Source: Hamadaea tsunoensis DSM 44101
GTDB lineage: Bacteria > Actinomycetota > Actinomycetes > Mycobacteriales > Micromonosporaceae
Length of the DNA: 64,000 nucleotides
NCBI RefSeq assembly: GCF_000428945.1
Contig: NZ_AUAX01000004.1
Coordinates: 186,001-250,000 of the forward strand
Reading direction: 5' to 3'
Numbering within the stretch: the first letter of the stretch is position 1; each line of letters begins with the position of its first letter. A program made the position numbers and the translations under genes. Shown piece after piece: positions 30,654 to 41,759 of this stretch. Below the pieces are notes generated by a model. It was not told the DNA's origin, made no database searches, and saw only the letters and a program-made list of their open reading frames with translations.

Positions 30654-30839
30654 ATGTCGCAGGAACACGCCGCCGCGACGGTGGCCCAGTGGCGTACGGC
30701 CGCCGGACCGCAGAACCCGGCCGGCCCGCTGTTCAGCGGTGGCCAGTACACCGAGGCCGAGCTGCGGATGAAGACCGGTCTGCCGACCAACCGGTGCGGC
30801 ACCGCGTGCACCTGGTCGTCGACGCGGTACTGCTGCTGA
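30654..30839 (+). CDS. lanA: Class II lanthipeptide precursor (LanA)
   Basis: 61 aa. A strong ribosome-binding site (AAGGAGG, 30643-30649) precedes the ATG. The leader carries NPAG (residues 21-24) and the helix-like YTEAELRMKTG, both typical of class II leaders. The C-terminal CGTACTWSSTRYCC has Cys at 48, 52, 60 and 61, Thr at 50, 53 and 57, and Ser at 55 and 56: four cysteines for up to four (methyl)lanthionines. No Gly-Gly precedes the core; cleavage near PTNR-C is possible. It ends 9 nt before lanM. No known lantibiotic with this core comes to mind. Confidence 0.85.
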   Translation: MSQEHAAATVAQWRTAAGPQNPAGPLFSGGQYTEAELRMKTGLPTNRCGTACTWSSTRYCC

Positions 30840-30848
30840 GCGCAGCCG

Positions 30849-33683
30849 GTGACGGCCAGCGACACCGCTGACTTCACCGCGTCGCTGGGCTGCCTGATCG
30901 ATCCGGCCATGGCCGGGCTGGCAGCCCAGCTCGCGGAAGTCCGCGGGGTGACCTCCGACGAACGTGGCGTCCTCCTGGACGCGCTGCGCGAATCCCTGCG
31001 CGGCACTCTGCACCGCAAGCTGACCCGGCTGCTGGTGCTCGACCTCAACGCCGCCCGCGTCACCGGCCGGCTGACCGCGCCGACCTCCGCCGGACGCTGG
31101 GACGAGTTCATCGCGATGACGCGCACGGAGGCGTACTGGGCGGAGGTGGCGGGGCACTATCCACCGGTTCCCGGCCGGGTGGCGACCATTGTGGGCAACC
31201 GCTGCGCCGCCGCGCTCACCCTCGCCCGCCGGTACGCCGCCGACAAGGCGTACCTCGGCATCGGGGATCTGCGCAACGCCTCCTTCGGCGACGGGGACAG
31301 CCACCGTGGCGGTCAGGCCGTCGCCCTGTTGCGCGGCACCGGCGGAACGACCGTCTACAAGCCCCGCTCGGTACGCGTCGACGCCGTCCTCGAAGCCTTC
31401 CTCCGCGCCCTGCCGACCGAGCTGCGCATCCCGTCGGTGCTCGCCCGGCGGGACGACGGCGGCGACTACGGCTGGGCGGAGTACGTCGAGCACACCTACT
31501 GTGCCGGCGACGCCGAACTCGGCCGGTTCTACACCGGCGTAGGCCACCTGCTGGCCGTGATGCGCCTGCTCGGCGGGTCGGACCTGCACTCGGAGAACAT
31601 GATCGCGGTCGGCCCGGTGCCGGTCGTCGTCGACTGCGAGACGCTGTTCACCCCCGCGATCCCGGCGAAGCCGTCCGGCCTCGGCGGCGCCGTCGACCGG
31701 GCCGGCGACCTGATCGACGGGACGGTTCTGCGTACCGGGCTGCTGCCGGGGCGCGGCGTCGCGCTCGGCTGGCGCGGCGTGGACGCGTCGGCCGTCGGCG
31801 GGCTGCCCGGCCAGCAGCCGATGGGGGAGCGGCCCGTGCTCGTCGGCGCGGGGACCGACGAGGCGTACATCGGGTTGGAGACCTTCGATCCGGGGGTCGC
31901 GCAGAACCATCCGAGCCCGCAGCCGGCGCTGGGCGAGCACTGGGACCGGGTCGTCGAGGGCTTCGACGAGATCACCGCGGCCCTGCGCGAGCTGGACAAG
32001 AAGGGGCGGCTGGAGGGTCTGCTGGCCCCGTTCGCCGACTGCCCGATCCGCGTCGTCGTCCGCTCCACCGAGGGGTACGCCGAGATCGAGCGGATGCTGT
32101 GGCACCCGGTGTCGCTGCACGAACCGGAGCCGGCGCTGGACCGCGCGGCGCAGATCCTCGCCGACATGGCCCACTCGGTCCCGGGCGCGCCCGACGACCC
32201 GGACGTGATCGCCGCCGAGCTCGCCGACCTGCAGGACGGCGACATCCCGTTCTTCGCCACCACCCCGGCGACCGGGCAGCTGGCCGGCCCCCGCGGTACG
32301 CGCTGGCACCCGGTCAAGGATCTCGTCGCGGATTCCCTGCTGCGCTGGCGGGAGGCCGATCTCGGCCTGGAGCGCCGCGTGATCCGGTCGGCGCTGGTGT
32401 CGGCGTACCTGAACGAGGGGTGGCTGCCGGCCGACGCGTCGCTCCGGCCGGCGAGCGTGTCAACGGACGACCTGGGGATGCGGCGCCGCGCCGTGATCAG
32501 GAAGATCATCGAGCGGACGGTCGACGAGGCCGTCCACGGGGACGACGGCACCGTCACGTGGATCTCGCCGATCCTCAACCCGACCGGCTGGGCGGTGCAG
32601 GCCCTCAGCCCCGACTTCTACGGCGGCGCCCCCGGTGTGGCGATCGTCGTGGCGGCGTACCGGCGGGAGGTGGCGGCGGGCCGGGCCGATCCGGTGGCCG
32701 GGCTCGACGACCTGCTCGACGGTCTGCTCAGGACGATGGAGCTGACCGAGATCAAGGTCGACGACGACCTCGCCTCCGAGTTCGACGTCCGCCCGCCGCC
32801 GCTCGGCTCGCAGATCGGCCTGGGCGGCCAGATCTGGTCCTGGCTCGTCCTCGAACGCCTCGGCGTCACCGTGGCCGAGGAGCGGCCGCGGAACCTGGCG
32901 AAGCACATCCCCGCGGCGCTCGCGGTCGACGACGAGTTCTCGCTCATGATCGGCGCGTCCGGGGCGGTGGTGCCGCTGCTCGACCTGGCCGAGCGGACCG
33001 GCGAGGAACGGTACGTCGACCTCGCCCGGCAACTCGGCGACCGGCTCGTCGAAACGGCGAAGGAGGTGCCGCTGCCGTGGGGCGGGGTCGGCGCGGTCTG
33101 GCCCACGCCGCGCTGGCCGGCCGGGCTTGGCGGGCTCGTGCACGGCTCGACCGGCATCGGCTGGGCGCTCGCCCGGCTGTTCCTCCACACCGGACAGACC
33201 CGGTACGCCGACCGGGCGCGGGAGGCGTTCGCCTTCGAGGATCTCCTGTGGGACCCGGCCGAACAGGCGTGGCGGGACCTGCGTGAACCCTCCCGGTGCT
33301 CGGCGGCCTGGTGCCACGGCACGGTCGGCATCGGCCTGCTCGCCCACGACCTGCGCGTACGCGGCTTCGAACGGCCGGATCTCGCACCGGTCGCGGCCCG
33401 CACGACGTTCGACGTGGCGCTCGGCTGGAACCACACGCTGTGCCACGGGGACCTCGGCGCGTGGGAACTGTTCGACCTCGCTCCGCCGCCCGGCGCCGAC
33501 CTCGGGCTGTTCGAGGCCGAGCTCGTCACCGCCATCGAGGAGCACGGCCCCGTCACCGGCCTCGCCCGCAACGCCTTCACGCCGGGCCTGCTGCCGGGCG
33601 CGGGCGGGATCGCGTACCAGTTGCTGCGCTTCGATCGGTCGGCCGGGCTGCCCTCGGTCCTCGTGCCCGGAGGTGCCCGCTGA
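30849..33683 (+). CDS. lanM: Class II lanthipeptide synthetase LanM
   Basis: 944 aa, bifunctional. N-terminal dehydratase (DUF4135): VYKPRS with Lys171, GSDLHSEN (Asp245, His247, Asn250) and VDCETLF (Asp262, Glu264), the residues that phosphorylate and eliminate Ser/Thr. C-terminal LanC-like cyclase: GLVHGSTGIG (His765), then zinc ligands Cys822 (WCHGTVGIG), Cys865 and His866 (LCHGDLG). All key residues are intact, so the enzyme should be active. GTG start, 9 nt after the precursor stop. The following exporter gene begins at or close to its end. Confidence 0.95.
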   Translation: MTASDTADFTASLGCLIDPAMAGLAAQLAEVRGVTSDERGVLLDALRESLRGTLHRKLTRLLVLDLNAARVTGRLTAPTSAGRWDEFIAMTRTEAYWAEVAGHYPPVPGRVATIVGNRCAAALTLARRYAADKAYLGIGDLRNASFGDGDSHRGGQAVALLRGTGGTTVYKPRSVRVDAVLEAFLRALPTELRIPSVLARRDDGGDYGWAEYVEHTYCAGDAELGRFYTGVGHLLAVMRLLGGSDLHSENMIAVGPVPVVVDCETLFTPAIPAKPSGLGGAVDRAGDLIDGTVLRTGLLPGRGVALGWRGVDASAVGGLPGQQPMGERPVLVGAGTDEAYIGLETFDPGVAQNHPSPQPALGEHWDRVVEGFDEITAALRELDKKGRLEGLLAPFADCPIRVVVRSTEGYAEIERMLWHPVSLHEPEPALDRAAQILADMAHSVPGAPDDPDVIAAELADLQDGDIPFFATTPATGQLAGPRGTRWHPVKDLVADSLLRWREADLGLERRVIRSALVSAYLNEGWLPADASLRPASVSTDDLGMRRRAVIRKIIERTVDEAVHGDDGTVTWISPILNPTGWAVQALSPDFYGGAPGVAIVVAAYRREVAAGRADPVAGLDDLLDGLLRTMELTEIKVDDDLASEFDVRPPPLGSQIGLGGQIWSWLVLERLGVTVAEERPRNLAKHIPAALAVDDEFSLMIGASGAVVPLLDLAERTGEERYVDLARQLGDRLVETAKEVPLPWGGVGAVWPTPRWPAGLGGLVHGSTGIGWALARLFLHTGQTRYADRAREAFAFEDLLWDPAEQAWRDLREPSRCSAAWCHGTVGIGLLAHDLRVRGFERPDLAPVAARTTFDVALGWNHTLCHGDLGAWELFDLAPPPGADLGLFEAELVTAIEEHGPVTGLARNAFTPGLLPGAGGIAYQLLRFDRSAGLPSVLVPGGAR

Positions 33684-33727
33684 CCGACGAACTCGCCGCG
33701 CCGGAGTGGCGGCTCGAGGACGCGTCC

Positions 33728-35551
33728 GTGCGCACGCTCGGACCGTGGGGGCTGCTGCGCCGGCTCGGCGAGGCCGCGCGGCCCATCGCCGGCATCATCC
33801 GGTCCGCGGCCCCGCGTCCCGCCGCCCTCATCCTCGCCGCCCAGGTCGCCGCCGGCCTCGCGGGCGCCACCGGCCTGCTCGCGACCACCGGCGTCCTGGA
33901 GAACCTCCTCGCCGCCGGGCCCACCCCCGAGCGCATCGCCGCGGCCCTGCCCGGCCTCCTGCTCGTCATCTTCGGGTACGCGACGCGGGGTGCCCTGGAT
34001 CTCGTCACGGCGTTCGCGGCCGCCCGGCTCGTCCCGGCCGTCCGGCGCGCGGCCGAGCAGCGGCTCTACGCCGCCGCCGTGGCGGTCGAGTTGAGCGCGT
34101 TCGACGACGCGACCTTCTACGACCGGCTGCACCGGGCCCGGGACCGGGCCGTCCCGCACATCGAGCGGGCCGCCGAGAACCTCGTCGAGCTGCTCGGCGC
34201 CCTGTTCGCGCTGGCGGCCGCGGCGACGACGGTCGGCGTACTGCACCCGGTGCTGCTGCCGGTGCTGGTGCTCGGGGTCGCCCCGGAAGCCTGGGCGGTG
34301 CTGCGGGCGGCCCGGGTCGAGTTCGCCACGATGACGGTCACGGCCACCCTCGCCCGTCGCGTGTGGATGATCGCCGACCTGGCCACCAAGCGCGAGGCGG
34401 CCGCCGAGATCCGCGCCTGCCAGGCCGAGGCGTACGTGCTGGACGACTATGCCCGCGCGGCGGAAGCGTTGCGGCGTCAGGAGACCGTCGTCGGCACGAT
34501 GCTCGCGCGGACGCGGGCGGCCGGCCGGATATTCGCCGGGGCGGGGATCGCGCTGACCTACGTCGCGCTCGCCGTCCTGCTCGACGTCGGATGGGTCGCG
34601 CTGCCGGTCGCCGGCACCGCCGTCATCGCCATCCGGGCCTCCGTCGGCGCGCTGACCCGGCTCGTCGTCTCCGGCAACCGGATCGTCGAACAGGCCCTGT
34701 ACGTGGCCGACTACCGCTCGTTCCTCACCGACGCCCACGCCCGGCGCGGCTCCACACCGGGCCGCCCGGTGACCGGGGGACCGCGCGTGATCCGGGTCGA
34801 GGACGTCACCTTCCGCTATCCGGGTTCGGCCCGCCCCGCCCTGAGCCAGGTCGACCTGACCATCCACGCGGGACAGACGATCGCCCTGGTCGGCGAGAAC
34901 GGCTCCGGCAAGACGACCCTCGCGAAACTGCTCGCCGGCCTCTACCGGCCGACCGAGGGCGCCGTCCGCTGGGACGGCGACGATCTGCGTACGCTCGACG
35001 CCGACGGGCTCGCCGCCCAGATCGTCATGGTCCAGCAGGAACCCGTCCGCTGGCCCGCCACCGCCCGCGCCAACGTACGCGTCGGCCGGTCGACGCGGAC
35101 GGACGACGATGACGAGATGCTGCTCCGGGTCGCGCGGCAGGCTCGGGCGGACGAGGTCGTCGACCGGCTGCCGCAGCGGTGGGAGACCCTGCTGTCGCGG
35201 TACTTCCGGGGCGGGCAGGAGCTGTCGGGCGGCCAGTGGCAGCGGATGGCGATCGCCCGCGGCCTCTACCGCGACGCGCCCCTGCTGCTCTGGGACGAGC
35301 CGACGGCACCCCTCGACGCCCGGGCCGAGGCCGCCGTCTACGAATCGCTGCGGCAGCTGGCCGAAGGGCGTACCGTCCTGCTGATCACGCACCGGCTGGC
35401 GAGCGTCCGGTACGCCGACCGGATCTTCCTGCTGCACCAGGGCGAACTCGTCGAGCAGGGCACCCACGCCGAGCTCATGGCCGCCGACGGCCGCTACGCC
35501 GAGCTGTACGCCCTGCAGTCGCGGATGTACGCCCCGGCGGAGCCGGTATGA
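33728..35551 (+). CDS. ABC exporter, fused membrane and ATPase domains (LanT-like without peptidase)
   Basis: About 607 aa from GTG 33728; a CTG at 33680, overlapping the lanM stop, would add 16 residues and cannot be excluded. Six-helix membrane domain in the first 330 residues. The nucleotide-binding domain has Walker A VGENGSGKTT (near residue 390), signature LSGGQWQRMAIARG (near 500), Walker B LLLWDEP and His loop LLITHRLASV. There is no N-terminal C39 peptidase, so the leader must be removed by another protease. It probably exports the modified peptide. Confidence 0.88.
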   Translation: MRTLGPWGLLRRLGEAARPIAGIIRSAAPRPAALILAAQVAAGLAGATGLLATTGVLENLLAAGPTPERIAAALPGLLLVIFGYATRGALDLVTAFAAARLVPAVRRAAEQRLYAAAVAVELSAFDDATFYDRLHRARDRAVPHIERAAENLVELLGALFALAAAATTVGVLHPVLLPVLVLGVAPEAWAVLRAARVEFATMTVTATLARRVWMIADLATKREAAAEIRACQAEAYVLDDYARAAEALRRQETVVGTMLARTRAAGRIFAGAGIALTYVALAVLLDVGWVALPVAGTAVIAIRASVGALTRLVVSGNRIVEQALYVADYRSFLTDAHARRGSTPGRPVTGGPRVIRVEDVTFRYPGSARPALSQVDLTIHAGQTIALVGENGSGKTTLAKLLAGLYRPTEGAVRWDGDDLRTLDADGLAAQIVMVQQEPVRWPATARANVRVGRSTRTDDDDEMLLRVARQARADEVVDRLPQRWETLLSRYFRGGQELSGGQWQRMAIARGLYRDAPLLLWDEPTAPLDARAEAAVYESLRQLAEGRTVLLITHRLASVRYADRIFLLHQGELVEQGTHAELMAADGRYAELYALQSRMYAPAEPV

Positions 35552-36876
35552 CCGGGGACTGGGACGACCTCGCCGGGAAGCTGTCGCGCGGACTGCTCCG
35601 TCCGCACCATTCCGCGTACTCCCGGGTGAGACGGAGCTGGGTGGGCGGGGAGCGCGACGTGCTGCCCGAGGCCGTCGCGGTGTGCGCGGACGAGGGCGAC
35701 GTGGCCGCGGCGCTGGAGTTCGCGCGGACCCGGTCCGTCCCCTTCGCGGTACGCAGCGGCGGCCACAGCTACACGGACGCGTCCAGCACCCCGGGCCTGC
35801 TCATCCTGCTCGCCGACCTCGACGCCGTACGCCTCGACGGCGACCTCGTGACGGTCGGCCCGGGCGCCCGCCTCGGCGACGTGGCCGCGACGCTCGCCGC
35901 CCACGGACGGTGCCTGCCCACGGGTTCCTGCGCGTCGGTGGCCCTCGGCGGCAGCGTGCTCGCCGGCGGCTTCGGCTTCCTCGGCCGGACGTTCGGCCTG
36001 ACCTGCGACGCGCTCGTGTCCGCTCGCATCCTGCTGCCGTCGGGCGAATGGGCGTCCGACGGCGACGTGGACTGGGCCGTGCGGGGCGGCGGAGCGGTCG
36101 GGATCGCGACCTCCTACACGCTGCGCACGTTCCCGCTGCCCGACGTGACGATCTTCGCCGGCCGGTGGCCGCTCGCCGCCGCGGCGCCGGTGCTGTACCG
36201 CTGGCAGCACGCCCTGCCGAGGCTGCCCGGCGACGTGGCCGCCCACGTGTCGCTGACCCTGCCGGACTTTCCCGACGAGGAGCCGTTCGTCGAGCTGTTC
36301 GGCTGCACGCTCGGCTCGCCCGTCCCGTCCTTCCTGCTCTCCGGCTGCTCGGACCTGTTCGTCCGCGACCTCTCCGGTCCGGCCGCGGCGTCCTATGTAT
36401 CCGGTGGAATGTGGCGGCGGGGTGAGGTCTTTCCCGTTTCCTCGACCGTTCCGCCGGCTCCGGGGTTCCAGCGGTCCGCGTCGGCGTTCGTCGCCCGCCC
36501 GATCCCGGCGACCGGGCTGGCGGCGCTGGTGGCCGCGCTGGAGCAGGTGCCGGGGGAGCAGCGGGACGTCGAGTTCACGCCCTGGGGCGGCGCCTACGGT
36601 GCCGTGTCCGCATCGGACAGTGCGTTCGTGCACCGCGACGACCTGTTCCTGGTGGCGGTCCGGGCGGTCCTCGGCGCGTCGGCCGCCGCGGCCCGGCGCT
36701 CGGCGGCTTCGGACTGGGTCCGCCGCTGTGCCGAGGCGGTCTCGCCCTATGCGACCGGCCGCTCGTACCAGGGTTACGCCGGACCGTCGCTGTCGCCGGA
36801 GTTCTACGGGTCGTCGGCCGCGCGCCTCGCGACGATCGTCCGGCGGCACGACCCCGACGGGTTGTTCGGCCGCTGA
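35548..36876 (+). CDS. Berberine-bridge-type FAD-linked oxidase
   Basis: 442 aa. FAD-binding PCMH-type fold: VRSGGHSYTD with His73 (8-alpha-histidyl FAD site) and PTGSCASVALGGSVLAGGFG with Cys128 (position of the 6-S-cysteinyl bond), so a bicovalent flavin is plausible. The BBE-like C-terminus is GYAGPSLSPEFYG with DPDGLFG at the end. Such enzymes oxidise C-H, C-N or alcohol groups using O2. The ATG overlaps the exporter stop (ATGA), making it the fourth gene of the lanthipeptide operon and a likely tailoring oxidase. There is no signal peptide, so it acts in the cytoplasm. Confidence 0.88.
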   Translation: MTGDWDDLAGKLSRGLLRPHHSAYSRVRRSWVGGERDVLPEAVAVCADEGDVAAALEFARTRSVPFAVRSGGHSYTDASSTPGLLILLADLDAVRLDGDLVTVGPGARLGDVAATLAAHGRCLPTGSCASVALGGSVLAGGFGFLGRTFGLTCDALVSARILLPSGEWASDGDVDWAVRGGGAVGIATSYTLRTFPLPDVTIFAGRWPLAAAAPVLYRWQHALPRLPGDVAAHVSLTLPDFPDEEPFVELFGCTLGSPVPSFLLSGCSDLFVRDLSGPAAASYVSGGMWRRGEVFPVSSTVPPAPGFQRSASAFVARPIPATGLAALVAALEQVPGEQRDVEFTPWGGAYGAVSASDSAFVHRDDLFLVAVRAVLGASAAAARRSAASDWVRRCAEAVSPYATGRSYQGYAGPSLSPEFYGSSAARLATIVRRHDPDGLFGR

Positions 36877-39724: not shown

Positions 39725-41539
39725 TCAGCTGATCCGGGTGATGGCGTTCCAGCCGCTGTCGCCGACCTGCGTACGCGGGCCGTCGGCCGGGTCGCCGGCG
39801 GCACCGGTTCCGCCCGCATAGAACTGCAGCGTGCCGTCGCCGGCGGTGGCCCAGAGGTCGGCCGTGCCGTTGCCGTCGGCGTCCCCGGCGGCGATCAGCG
39901 GGCGGTTGGCGAGCGTCCAGCCCCGGGTGCCGTAGACCGTCCGGGCGCCGAACGTTGCGCCCGCCTGGCCCCGGTAGAGGTAGAGCACGCCGCTCGCGGT
40001 GTCGCGGGCCAGCAGGTCGGGCCGGCCGTCGTGGTCGGCGTCGCCGGGAGCGCTCAAGGTCATCACACCCCAGCCGCCGGTGCCGATCAGGCGGCCGGCG
40101 AGCAGCGCGGGCCGGTGGGCCGGATCGCCCGGGTACAGGTACAGCTGGTCGCCGCGGATCGCCACGACGTCCGGGTAGCCGTCGCCGGTCAGGTCGCCGA
40201 CGCTGAGCACCTGCGACACGGCCGACCAGCCGGTGGCGCCCACCGCGACGCGGCTGCCGAGCCGGCCGTAGCCGAGGTTCGGGTAGATCCAGAGGCCGTC
40301 GCCGACGCGGGCGAGCACGTCCTCGGTGCCGTCGCCGGTGAAGTCGCCCCGGTGGCTGATCGCCGCGCCCGTCCAGCCGCCGGTGCCGATGACGCCGTTC
40401 GGCCACACGACCGAGCCGTCGCCGCGGCCCGCGTACAGGCGCAGCTTGCCGTCGCCGTCGATGGCCGCCAGGTCGGGCAGCCCGTCCCCGGTCAGGTCGC
40501 CCGCCGTCGCCGGCGGGTCGGCGGGGGTACGCGTACGCAGGTAGCCGATGAGCGGCGCGTGATCGGAGTCGCCGTTCGACGCGGGCAGCCCCAGCTGCGA
40601 CGTGTCCACCCGGGAGAGATCGGCGTCGCAGTAGTGGAACAGCGAGCCGGCGCCGGGCAGCGAGGCGAAGATGTGGTCCCGCTTGGTCCAGACACCGCCG
40701 CCGGTTGTCCACGCGAAGTGCGTGACCTCGTTGACCGCGTCCCCGCTGGAGTAGGAATGCCGGTCGCACTCGTCGAACGCGTCCTCCAGCGGTTGCAGAA
40801 GAGTGGTGTCCGGAAACATGTTGAAGTCGCCGCCGAGCACGAGGTCGTAGCGGTCCGCCCAGACGTCGGCGCGGACGTTCTCGATCTGCGCGCCCCGTCG
40901 GGGGTCCTTCACCTCGGCAAGGATGTGAGTGGTGCAGATCCGCGTGGTCCACTCGGCGGTGCGTACGCACAGCAGCGGCAGCTGCTGCGCGCTGTAGGCC
41001 GGGGTGGCGGGGACGGTGTCCTGCCGGGTGGTCTCGGTGATCGTGGCCTTCACCGCGACGGCCACGCCGAGGTCGCCTTTGAGCTCGACGGTGTCTTTGT
41101 TGTCCCGGCAGTTGCCGGTGCCGTCCGGGCGGGCCGCCTTCGCGTGCACGACGCTCCACCCCGGACCGAGATCGGCGGCGAGCAGGCTGAGCTGGCTGCC
41201 GTCCTCGCCGCCGCAGATCTCCTGCAAGAGGATGACGTTCGCGTCGTGCGCCGCGGCGGCGTCGGCGATGTGCTGAGCCTTGTACACCGGTTCGTTGCGG
41301 TGCGGGCAGTACCCGGCCATGCCCGGATCGCCGCCCGCCTCCCCGCAGACGTTCCACGTCATGACCCGCAGCTCGGGCGAGGACGCCGAGGTACTGAGGG
41401 TGGCTGCCGTGGTGGTCGTCGGGGCGGCCCGCAGGGTGGCCGGAAGGGCAGCGGGTCGGGCGAGGACGGGCGATGGGCCGGGCAGCAGAGCGAGGGCGAT
41501 CCCGGCCACCGCGGCGACCCATCGGAAACGATTACGCAT
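39725..41539 (-). CDS. Secreted endonuclease/exonuclease/phosphatase-fold protein with FG-GAP repeats
   Basis: 604 aa. Signal peptide at residues 1-29 (RFRWVAAVAGIALALLPG). Residues of about 55-350 form an EEP (DNase I-like) domain: VMTWNVCGE, LLQEICGG with the metal Glu, VLGGDFNMFPD and the terminal SDHAPLIG. About 240 residues of FG-GAP/VCBS repeats follow (GDLTGDGLPDLAAIDGDG, GDFTGDGTEDVLARVGDG, GDADHDGRPDLLARD), likely calcium-binding blades. It should act outside the cell on nucleic acid or phosphoesters. ATG 41539 begins the signal peptide. Confidence 0.85.
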   Translation of the reverse strand: MRNRFRWVAAVAGIALALLPGPSPVLARPAALPATLRAAPTTTTAATLSTSASSPELRVMTWNVCGEAGGDPGMAGYCPHRNEPVYKAQHIADAAAAHDANVILLQEICGGEDGSQLSLLAADLGPGWSVVHAKAARPDGTGNCRDNKDTVELKGDLGVAVAVKATITETTRQDTVPATPAYSAQQLPLLCVRTAEWTTRICTTHILAEVKDPRRGAQIENVRADVWADRYDLVLGGDFNMFPDTTLLQPLEDAFDECDRHSYSSGDAVNEVTHFAWTTGGGVWTKRDHIFASLPGAGSLFHYCDADLSRVDTSQLGLPASNGDSDHAPLIGYLRTRTPADPPATAGDLTGDGLPDLAAIDGDGKLRLYAGRGDGSVVWPNGVIGTGGWTGAAISHRGDFTGDGTEDVLARVGDGLWIYPNLGYGRLGSRVAVGATGWSAVSQVLSVGDLTGDGYPDVVAIRGDQLYLYPGDPAHRPALLAGRLIGTGGWGVMTLSAPGDADHDGRPDLLARDTASGVLYLYRGQAGATFGARTVYGTRGWTLANRPLIAAGDADGNGTADLWATAGDGTLQFYAGGTGAAGDPADGPRTQVGDSGWNAITRIS

Positions 41540-41678
41540 GCCCCGATGATCGTCCTGCGCTCGTCCACTGTCTATTGTGGCCACCATCGCACACCGGCGT
41601 TGTCCCCCCGGAGCCCCGTCCACTCGTGCCCCGGCCCCGGGCCCCAGGCACCCAGGCACCCGGGCTCCAAGCCCGCCC

Positions 41679-41759
41679 CATGATCCCGTTTGGATCAGGG
41701 AAATCACCCGAATCTTGGCCCAAGATTACGTGCGAAAACCTGATCCAAACGGGATCATG
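41679..41759. repeat. 81-bp palindromic repeat, copy 2 (inverted orientation)
   Basis: Arms 41679-41699 and 41739-41759 pair almost perfectly. The inner palindrome AATCTTGGCCCAAGATT is at 41711-41727, and the two spacers are 11 nt each. The spacers are swapped relative to copy 1, so the element is inverted. A decayed extra half (CCAAACGGGATCATGG) follows at 41768. It occupies the gap between the LLM gene and the start of the nuclease-like gene. Confidence 0.85.

What the first reader, a model, noticed from the sequence alone, without database searches (positions are those of the whole stretch)
30654..36876. Class II lanthipeptide operon with a distinctive four-Cys core and a dedicated FAD oxidase
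Seen: a 61-aa precursor with an NPAG-type leader and core CGTACTWSSTRYCC, an intact LanM, a peptidase-less ABC exporter and a BBE-type oxidase, with very short spacings or overlaps throughout. Known: LanM makes (methyl)lanthionines; BBE-like flavoenzymes are not standard lanthipeptide tailoring enzymes. Inference: a compact peptide with up to four rings, two ending on adjacent Cys60-Cys61, then oxidised. I recall no described lanthipeptide with this core.
Basis: partly seen in the sequence, partly recalled or inferred. Interest (0 to 1): 0.88.

Follow-up and report, generated by a model that had tools for sequence, protein, structure and literature searches.

The report
Lanthipeptide operon with dedicated flavin oxidase
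A bacterium carries a four-gene kit for making a small ring-rich peptide, and its fourth gene belongs to a branch of flavin oxidases that appears to be dedicated to such peptides, pointing to a chemical modification not yet described for them.

Summary
In detail: window 30654-36876 encodes a 61-aa precursor, an intact LanM, a peptidase-less ABC exporter and a BBE-type flavin oxidase, tightly packed. The precursor is a DUF6229 protein, a family whose studied members are class II lanthipeptide precursors such as rhodanocin. The core is not unique: genome G854 has a precursor identical at 53 of 61 residues with the same four genes.

The oxidase is the new part. It stands beside LanM in 27 distinct clusters. 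In a 46-row tree the oxidases found beside lanthipeptide synthetases form one clade (99/98), spanning DUF6229 class II, mersacidin-type class II and class IV clusters. Of six strong genome hits that were not rows of the query profile, five stood beside LanM or LanL; of eight weaker ones, none did. The reaction is unknown. Ten of 27 cores lack Trp and Tyr from the first Cys on, favouring a Cys-, Ser- or Thr-derived target. I found no BBE-like enzyme acting on a lanthipeptide in the searched library.

The parts
30654..30839 (+). Class II lanthipeptide precursor, 61 aa, DUF6229 (PF19740); NPAG leader, core around RCGTACTWSSTRYCC
   Evidence: PF19740 E 5.4e-18, 65.1 bits; 53 of 61 residues identical to the precursor in L132, 18 codon differences of which 10 synonymous
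30849..33683 (+). LanM, bifunctional class II lanthipeptide synthetase, GTG start
   Evidence: TIGR03897 471 bits, cut-off 304; DUF4135 and LANC_like domains
33680..35551 (+). ABC exporter without peptidase domain; start codon unsure (CTG 33680 best fits relatives)
   Evidence: ABC_tran 117 bits; 55-58% identical to ABC genes in L014, L015 and L017 at the same place
35548..36876 (+). BBE-type (VAO/PCMH fold) flavin oxidase, His73 and Cys128 at the covalent-FAD positions
   Evidence: FAD_binding_4; model pLDDT 90.2, closest folds EncM and BBE-like enzymes; one clade of lanthipeptide-linked oxidases

Best explanation
This is a complete small operon for an oxidised class II lanthipeptide. Step 1 (inferred from family): LanM dehydrates Ser/Thr of the core and closes thioether rings on Cys48, 52, 60 and 61, probably in a rhodanocin-like interlocked pattern. 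Step 2 (dedication supported by the data, chemistry inferred): the flavin oxidase, with FAD held by His73 and Cys128, removes two electrons from the LanM-modified peptide and passes them to O2. It recognises the modified core rather than the leader. The favoured target is a Cys-, Ser- or Thr-derived residue (a thioether, an unreacted hydroxyl or a free terminal Cys), giving a mass change of about -2 Da. Step 3 (inferred): the ABC protein exports the peptide, and the leader is cut by a protease encoded elsewhere; none was recognised in the window cluster or among the gene families that recur beside these clusters.
For: Oxidase adjacent to LanM in 27 distinct DUF6229 clusters, order precursor-LanM-ABC-oxidase in 25 of the 27. 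In a 46-row tree the 27 oxidases beside lanthipeptide synthetases (22 DUF6229, 3 other class II, 2 class IV) form one clade 99/98, one change of state; the 19 other rows have no LanM or LanL match in the stretches held. The clade crosses three unrelated leader types and two synthetase classes: LanL 1008 and 1016 bits, mersacidin-type precursors with cores such as STACTKWSGLTPPRRCCC. Genome searches with the oxidase profile: 17 distinct hits of 531 bits or more, 16 beside a synthetase; 11 of the 17 are rows of the profile itself, and of the other six, five are beside a synthetase; 0 of 8 weaker hits. Purifying selection on the oxidase, dN/dS 0.11-0.34 in five close pairs and 0.45 for window versus L132. 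His73 and Cys128 in 26 of 27 each. From the first Cys on, five of 27 clusters have no Trp, Tyr or Phe and five more have only Phe. No PF02441 (LanD family) gene near the oxidase clusters in 10 genomes.
Against: No product is known. The oxidase is absent from many clusters with very similar cores, for example L044 CGTACTASRTRYCC, so the core alone does not call for it. The link between oxidase and the C-x2,3-C-[TS] motif is not significant once relatedness is allowed for (median p 0.25). One close relative of the clade, L171, has no LanM or LanL beside it. L128 lacks the His and L136 lacks the Cys. The 531-bit line was drawn after seeing the scores, at the window's own score, which is the lowest of the 17. 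Six of the eight weaker hits come from one genus, so they are few independent cases. Class IV cores share little with the class II ones, so one common reaction is an assumption. The core's N-terminal border is unknown; counted from 14 residues after NPAG, 8 rather than 10 of 27 clusters lack Trp and Tyr, and 3 rather than 5 lack Trp, Tyr and Phe.
Confidence: 0.66

Rival explanations
1. The oxidase acts on Trp54 or Tyr59 of the core, as an aromatic-oxidising BBE-like enzyme.
For: Window and L132 cores have W and Y; relatives of the enzyme such as Clz9/Tcz9 act on the phenolic substrate CBGA (EncM's polyketide substrate recalled). Within LanM clade B, cores with W/Y/F are commoner in oxidase clusters (24 of 27 against 14 of 24, p 0.02 not corrected for relatedness).
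Against: Ten of 27 oxidase-bearing clusters have no Trp or Tyr from the first Cys on (8 of 27 if counted from 14 residues after NPAG).
Confidence: 0.15
2. The oxidase replaces LanD: it oxidises the C-terminal Cys to an enethiol with decarboxylation, giving an aminovinyl-cysteine ring.
For: C-terminal Cys in 26 of 27 DUF6229 oxidase clusters and in the five mersacidin-type precursors of three clusters; no PF02441 gene close to the oxidase clusters in 10 genomes.
Against: Terminal Cys is just as universal without the oxidase (43 of 43 clusters with a precursor in LanM clade A); L126 cores and the five class IV candidate cores do not end in Cys. LanD enzymes are of another flavoprotein fold (recalled).
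Confidence: 0.13
3. The oxidase is a neighbour with its own small-molecule substrate, not part of the lanthipeptide pathway.
For: BBE-like genes are common: six places in this genome (seven rows, two of them pieces of one gene).
Against: ATGA overlap; recurrence in 27 clusters; single clade tied to three lanthipeptide types. One BBE-like gene per about 1.6 Mb makes such adjacency by chance very unlikely (my estimate).
Confidence: 0.06
4. The oxidase is a self-protection enzyme that inactivates the peptide inside the cell or activates it outside, rather than a structural tailoring step.
For: No immunity gene was recognised among recurring flank families, which were named by eye only; the BBE-like enzymes SfmCy2 and NapU mature or inactivate prodrugs (passages).
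Against: No signal peptide was tested here; nothing shows that the product is toxic to its host.
Confidence: 0.07

Closest known systems
Rhodanocin (LanII of Dyella sp. 333MFSha, DUF6229; PMC9576775, passages read)
   Same: DUF6229 leader family, class II LanM, core pattern C..CT.S resembling the window core, no native leader protease known
   Different: Three thioether rings; seven of eight Rhodanobacteraceae rows fall on the side of the LanM tree where 0 of 46 rows have the oxidase; the words FAD, oxidase and flavin do not occur in that paper's main text
DUF6229 lanthipeptide clusters of Lysobacter (PMC11451712, passages read)
   Same: 21 of 27 unique class II precursors there are DUF6229
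   Different: FAD does not occur in the text; its flavin oxidoreductases belong to polyketide clusters
FAD-dependent oxidoreductases noted in class IV lanthipeptide clusters (PMC7268733, passages read)
   Same: Independent notice that class IV clusters hold FAD-dependent oxidoreductases of unknown role
   Different: No family, clade or link to class II is given in the passages read; supplements were not available
BBE-like oxidases Clz9/Tcz9 and EncM
   Same: Closest solved structures by profile; EncM closest by Foldseek; bicovalent FAD in Clz9/Tcz9 (PMC12632287, passages)
   Different: About 25% identity to EncM; small-molecule substrates; a 2024 review of BBE-like enzymes in natural products has no occurrence of RiPP, ribosomal, lanthi or lantibiotic as word starts
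Flavin enzymes of known lanthipeptide pathways: LanD (MrsD, MicD), LanJB (CrnJ), MibH halogenase (PMC10373908, PMC12328550, passages)
   Same: Flavin-dependent lanthipeptide tailoring
   Different: Other reactions; other protein families as far as I recall (only LanD's PF02441 was looked for)

Membership tests
Class II lanthipeptide gene cluster | Bifunctional LanM with dehydratase and LanC-like domains | tested here: met
   TIGR03897 over cut-off, DUF4135 and LANC_like
Class II lanthipeptide gene cluster | Precursor with leader and Cys/Ser/Thr-rich core next to LanM | tested here: met
   9 nt upstream of LanM; homologous precursors in 97 of 101 locus rows examined
Class II lanthipeptide gene cluster | Thioether rings in the product | not testable with these tools
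   Needs mass spectrometry or NMR
DUF6229 (PF19740) precursors | Score above the gathering cut-off over the whole model | tested here: met
   65.1 bits against 25, profile 2-62 of 62
Rhodanocin group | Ring pattern Thr6-Cys11, Cys8-Ser14, Thr12-Cys23 | tested here: inconclusive
   Motif compatible by reading, but a fourth Cys is present and rings cannot be seen
BBE-like flavin oxidases | FAD_binding_4 domain and VAO/PCMH fold | tested here: met
   Foldseek top hits EncM and BBE-like enzymes, TM 0.86 on the query
BBE-like flavin oxidases | His and Cys for bicovalent FAD | tested here: met
   H73 and C128 by alignment
BBE-like flavin oxidases | C-terminal BBE domain (PF08031) with Y/FxN motif | tested here: not met
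   No PF08031 match in the window protein; YQG in place of YxN in 5 of 27 members, window included. Of five relatives, four are over the PF08031 cut-off and sister L132 just under it
LanD cysteine decarboxylases | Flavoprotein family PF02441 | tested here: not met
   No such hit for the oxidase in Pfam at E up to 1

The most novel reading that the evidence does not exclude
A family of BBE-like flavin oxidases has become a general tailoring enzyme of lanthipeptides. It is leader-independent, has been passed between class II systems with unrelated leaders and class IV systems, and installs an undescribed oxidative change on a Cys-, Ser- or Thr-derived residue (possibly an unsaturated thioether). 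It would be the first BBE-like enzyme shown to act on a ribosomal peptide of this kind.
Probability: 0.42. Interest if true: 0.76.

Novelty: new variant of a known kind. Interest (0 to 1): 0.6.

Why it matters
Lanthipeptide tailoring enzymes are much sought for peptide engineering. An oxidase that travels between leader types and synthetase classes is likely to read the ringed core itself, which is what makes an enzyme portable. The clade gives 32 test cases (27 DUF6229; 3 mersacidin-type and 2 class IV) and a with/without comparison between similar cores.

Tried and rejected
A correlation between core features and oxidase presence looked good uncorrected (C-x2,3-C-[TS] in 27 of 27 oxidase clusters against 15 of 24 without, p 0.0004) but fails when relatedness is allowed for; I do not use it as evidence. 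Aromatic oxidation as the universal reaction is disfavoured. Promoter and terminator scans gave nothing beyond shuffles. P0005 upstream of the precursor has only a weak HTH match, E 0.83. Families that recur beside oxidase clusters (grouped by BLAST and named by eye) were LanM, precursor, oxidase, ABC, one whose start looks like a SARP regulator (11 groups; name recalled) and one resembling a response regulator (8 groups; name recalled). The gene caller was crude: several listed families are reverse-strand artefacts and it missed some of the four core genes. Proteases were not searched by profile. Nearest solved relatives were checked for a peptide substrate and turned out to be cannabinoid-cyclising enzymes.

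Literature searches that found no BBE-like enzyme acting on a lanthipeptide: 7 papers, one opened; 71 papers held two or more terms, 30 were listed; 8 listed. Seen as passages only: PMC9576775, PMC11451712, PMC7268733, PMC12632287, PMC11375781, PMC10373908, PMC12328550. All other papers were seen in listings only. The library lacks most subscription journals, so a published case could have been missed.

Rows dropped or doubled: L129 and L130 are copies of L022 and L021 and were left out of the counts; L016 and L091 are the same locus and both stand in the LanM tree (98 rows, 97 different); L138 is partial and was left out. L082 has a distant BBE-like gene far from LanM and was counted as without. 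The scan kept 80 of 155 relatives. Contigs of L033, L039, L040 and L058 end near the LanM gene, so absence of the oxidase there is not shown. The tree left out ten of the 48 rows for speed (five of them near-copies, five distant paralogues) and added eight.
Full report
What is there. The window lies in a 9.48-Mb genome (G000:C4:186001-250000). Four genes run in one direction from 30654 to 36876: a 61-aa precursor, LanM, an ABC exporter and a flavin oxidase. The precursor stop and LanM start are 9 nt apart, the ABC gene overlaps LanM by 4 nt if its CTG start is right, and the oxidase ATG overlaps the ABC stop as ATGA. The LanM passes TIGR03897 with 471 bits (cut-off 304). The ABC protein has no peptidase domain hit.

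The precursor family. The precursor is a full-length DUF6229 protein (E 5.4e-18). A 2022 study showed that a DUF6229 precursor from Dyella gives a class II lanthipeptide, rhodanocin, and its authors believe that DUF6229 includes at least two groups with different ring patterns (PMC9576775, passages). Most Lysobacter class II precursors in another study belong to it (21 of 27, PMC11451712, passages). DUF6229 was found in 6 of 397 genomes drawn from the order (5 over the cut-off), 15 of 354 of the family (14 over) and 3 of 396 drawn from the phylum (1 over, the window itself). So the core is not without relatives. The closest found, in genome G854 (L132), has a precursor identical at 53 of 61 residues, ending CGTACTWSATRYCC; its enzymes are less alike: ABC 76%, LanM 61-66% in two pieces, oxidase 53%. 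The product is thus more conserved than its enzymes (inference).

Relatives. A home-made profile found a DUF6229-like precursor in 97 of 101; three of the four without one (L055, L056, L059) begin at the LanM gene. The oxidase stands beside LanM in 27 distinct clusters. Named hosts include Pseudonocardiaceae, Streptosporangiaceae, Micromonosporaceae and one gammaproteobacterium, Vulcaniibacterium. Order precursor-LanM-ABC-oxidase on one strand holds in 25 of 27; L126 has LanM-oxidase-ABC and several precursors, L136 has no ABC match. In a LanM tree of 98 rows the oxidase is on one side only: 0 of 46 rows on one side, 27 of 52 on the other, with at least 10 changes. L131 carries a remnant of the oxidase C-terminus after LanM, which reads as recent loss.

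The oxidase is a dedicated clade. In a careful tree of 46 oxidases, the 27 that stand beside a lanthipeptide synthetase fall in one clade, bootstrap 99 and SH-aLRT 98, and the trait needs one change. The 19 rows labelled otherwise have no LanM or LanL match in the 10-20 kb held around them. The clade includes oxidases from clusters that were not searched for: two class IV clusters with LanL over its NCBIfam cut-off (1008 and 1016 against 650 bits) and an S9-type peptidase, and three class II clusters with mersacidin/lichenicidin-type precursors (TIGR03898 at 23.5, 21.3 and 27.6 bits against 23.5, so one is below the cut-off). Two genome searches with the oxidase profile (354 and 397 genomes, partly the same ones) gave 17 distinct hits of 531 bits or more: 11 DUF6229, 3 other class II, 2 class IV and one, L171, beside a radical-SAM-containing gene group without LanM or LanL. 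The 11 DUF6229 hits are rows of the query profile, so the fair count is five of six new hits beside a synthetase. The 8 weaker hits (476-505 bits, six of them from one genus) have no LanM or LanL match nearby. The line at 531 bits was drawn after seeing the scores. Class I and class III synthetases were not looked for separately. The mersacidin-type cores (STACTKWSGLTPPRRCCC and similar) resemble the window core (TACTWSSTRYCC) although the leaders are unrelated, which points to recognition of the core (inference).

What the oxidase looks like. His73 and Cys128, at the bicovalent FAD positions, are each present in 26 of 27 members, and Gly126 and Val131 in 27 of 27. A model from 27 sequences has mean pLDDT 90.2; Foldseek puts EncM first, then BBE-like enzymes; by profile Clz9/Tcz9 come first. 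Entry titles (BBE G164A, a dehydrogenase; Phl p 4 I153V, an oxidase) make Gly126 and Val131 gatekeepers for O2 if my recalled numbering is right, so an O2-using oxidase is the likely reading. The window protein and four relatives have YQG where 22 of 27 have YxN, and the window protein has no Pfam BBE-domain match, while four of five relatives do. dN/dS in five close pairs is 0.11-0.34.

What it may do. Of the 27 oxidase-bearing clusters, ten have no Trp or Tyr from the first Cys on, five of them no Phe either; from 14 residues after NPAG the numbers are 8 and 3. So Trp or Tyr is unlikely to be the common target. C-terminal Cys is nearly universal, but with and without the oxidase alike, and the class IV candidate cores do not end in Cys. 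No gene of the LanD family PF02441 lies near the oxidase clusters of ten genomes; the nearest is over 100 kb away on the same contig. What the substrates share is Cys and Ser/Thr and hence, probably, thioethers. I therefore favour oxidation at such a residue after LanM or LanL, but the atom is not known. A rhodanocin-like pattern would use Cys48, Cys52 and one Cys of the terminal pair, and 12 of 27 clusters have no Ser or Thr between the motif Ser and the terminal CC, so there one terminal Cys must pair upstream or stay free. A free terminal thiol would be one candidate substrate.

Against this reading. The oxidase is missing from clusters with nearly the same core, the core-motif link fails after correction for relatedness, two members lack one of the two FAD anchors, and genome G1016 has DUF6229 clusters without and a class IV cluster with the oxidase, so action in trans cannot be excluded. 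No chemistry is shown here.

Novelty. Flavin enzymes of lanthipeptide pathways named in passages of two reviews are LanD, LanJB and halogenases. A 2024 review of BBE-like enzymes has no occurrence of RiPP, ribosomal, lanthi or lantibiotic as word starts. A 2020 survey noted FAD-dependent oxidoreductases in class IV clusters without function (PMC7268733, passage). The operon is a new variant of a known kind; the oxidase clade is the part that merits work.

Noticed in passing
L170 8978-15279 and L186 2631-9892: Class IV lanthipeptide clusters (LanL, S9-type peptidase, small acidic-leader candidate precursors such as MEMELDALELLHEEQPLTGGCTVETC...) with the same oxidase clade; L186 has four candidate precursors.
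   Followed up: partly
L187 3663-10404, L188 3252-10726, L189 3612-10381: Mersacidin-type class II clusters whose cores end in CCC, most with C-T-x-W-S/T, close to the window core despite an unrelated leader; L188 has three precursors.
   Followed up: partly
L126 8518-10636: Five or six tandem DUF6229 precursors in one cluster; the complete cores do not end in Cys and most carry C..C[TS]GSIC.
   Followed up: no
L131 6178-9672: A reduced cluster: precursor and LanM with an oxidase C-terminal remnant and no ABC match.
   Followed up: no
L171 3907-10596: Nearest relative of the clade without LanM or LanL, beside a protein with radical SAM and lysyl-tRNA-synthetase-like parts and a phosphodiesterase; possibly another peptide pathway.
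   Followed up: partly
L052: A record titled Rhodococcus rhodnii has a cluster almost identical to Kibdelosporangium aridum (L050); the title or the assembly may be wrong.
   Followed up: no
L043 14776-16206: A gammaproteobacterium (Vulcaniibacterium) has the four-gene cluster with an oxidase nested among actinobacterial ones, suggesting transfer between phyla.
   Followed up: no
window 39725-41707: Predicted protein with endonuclease/exonuclease/phosphatase and FG-GAP repeats, outside the operon.
   Followed up: no
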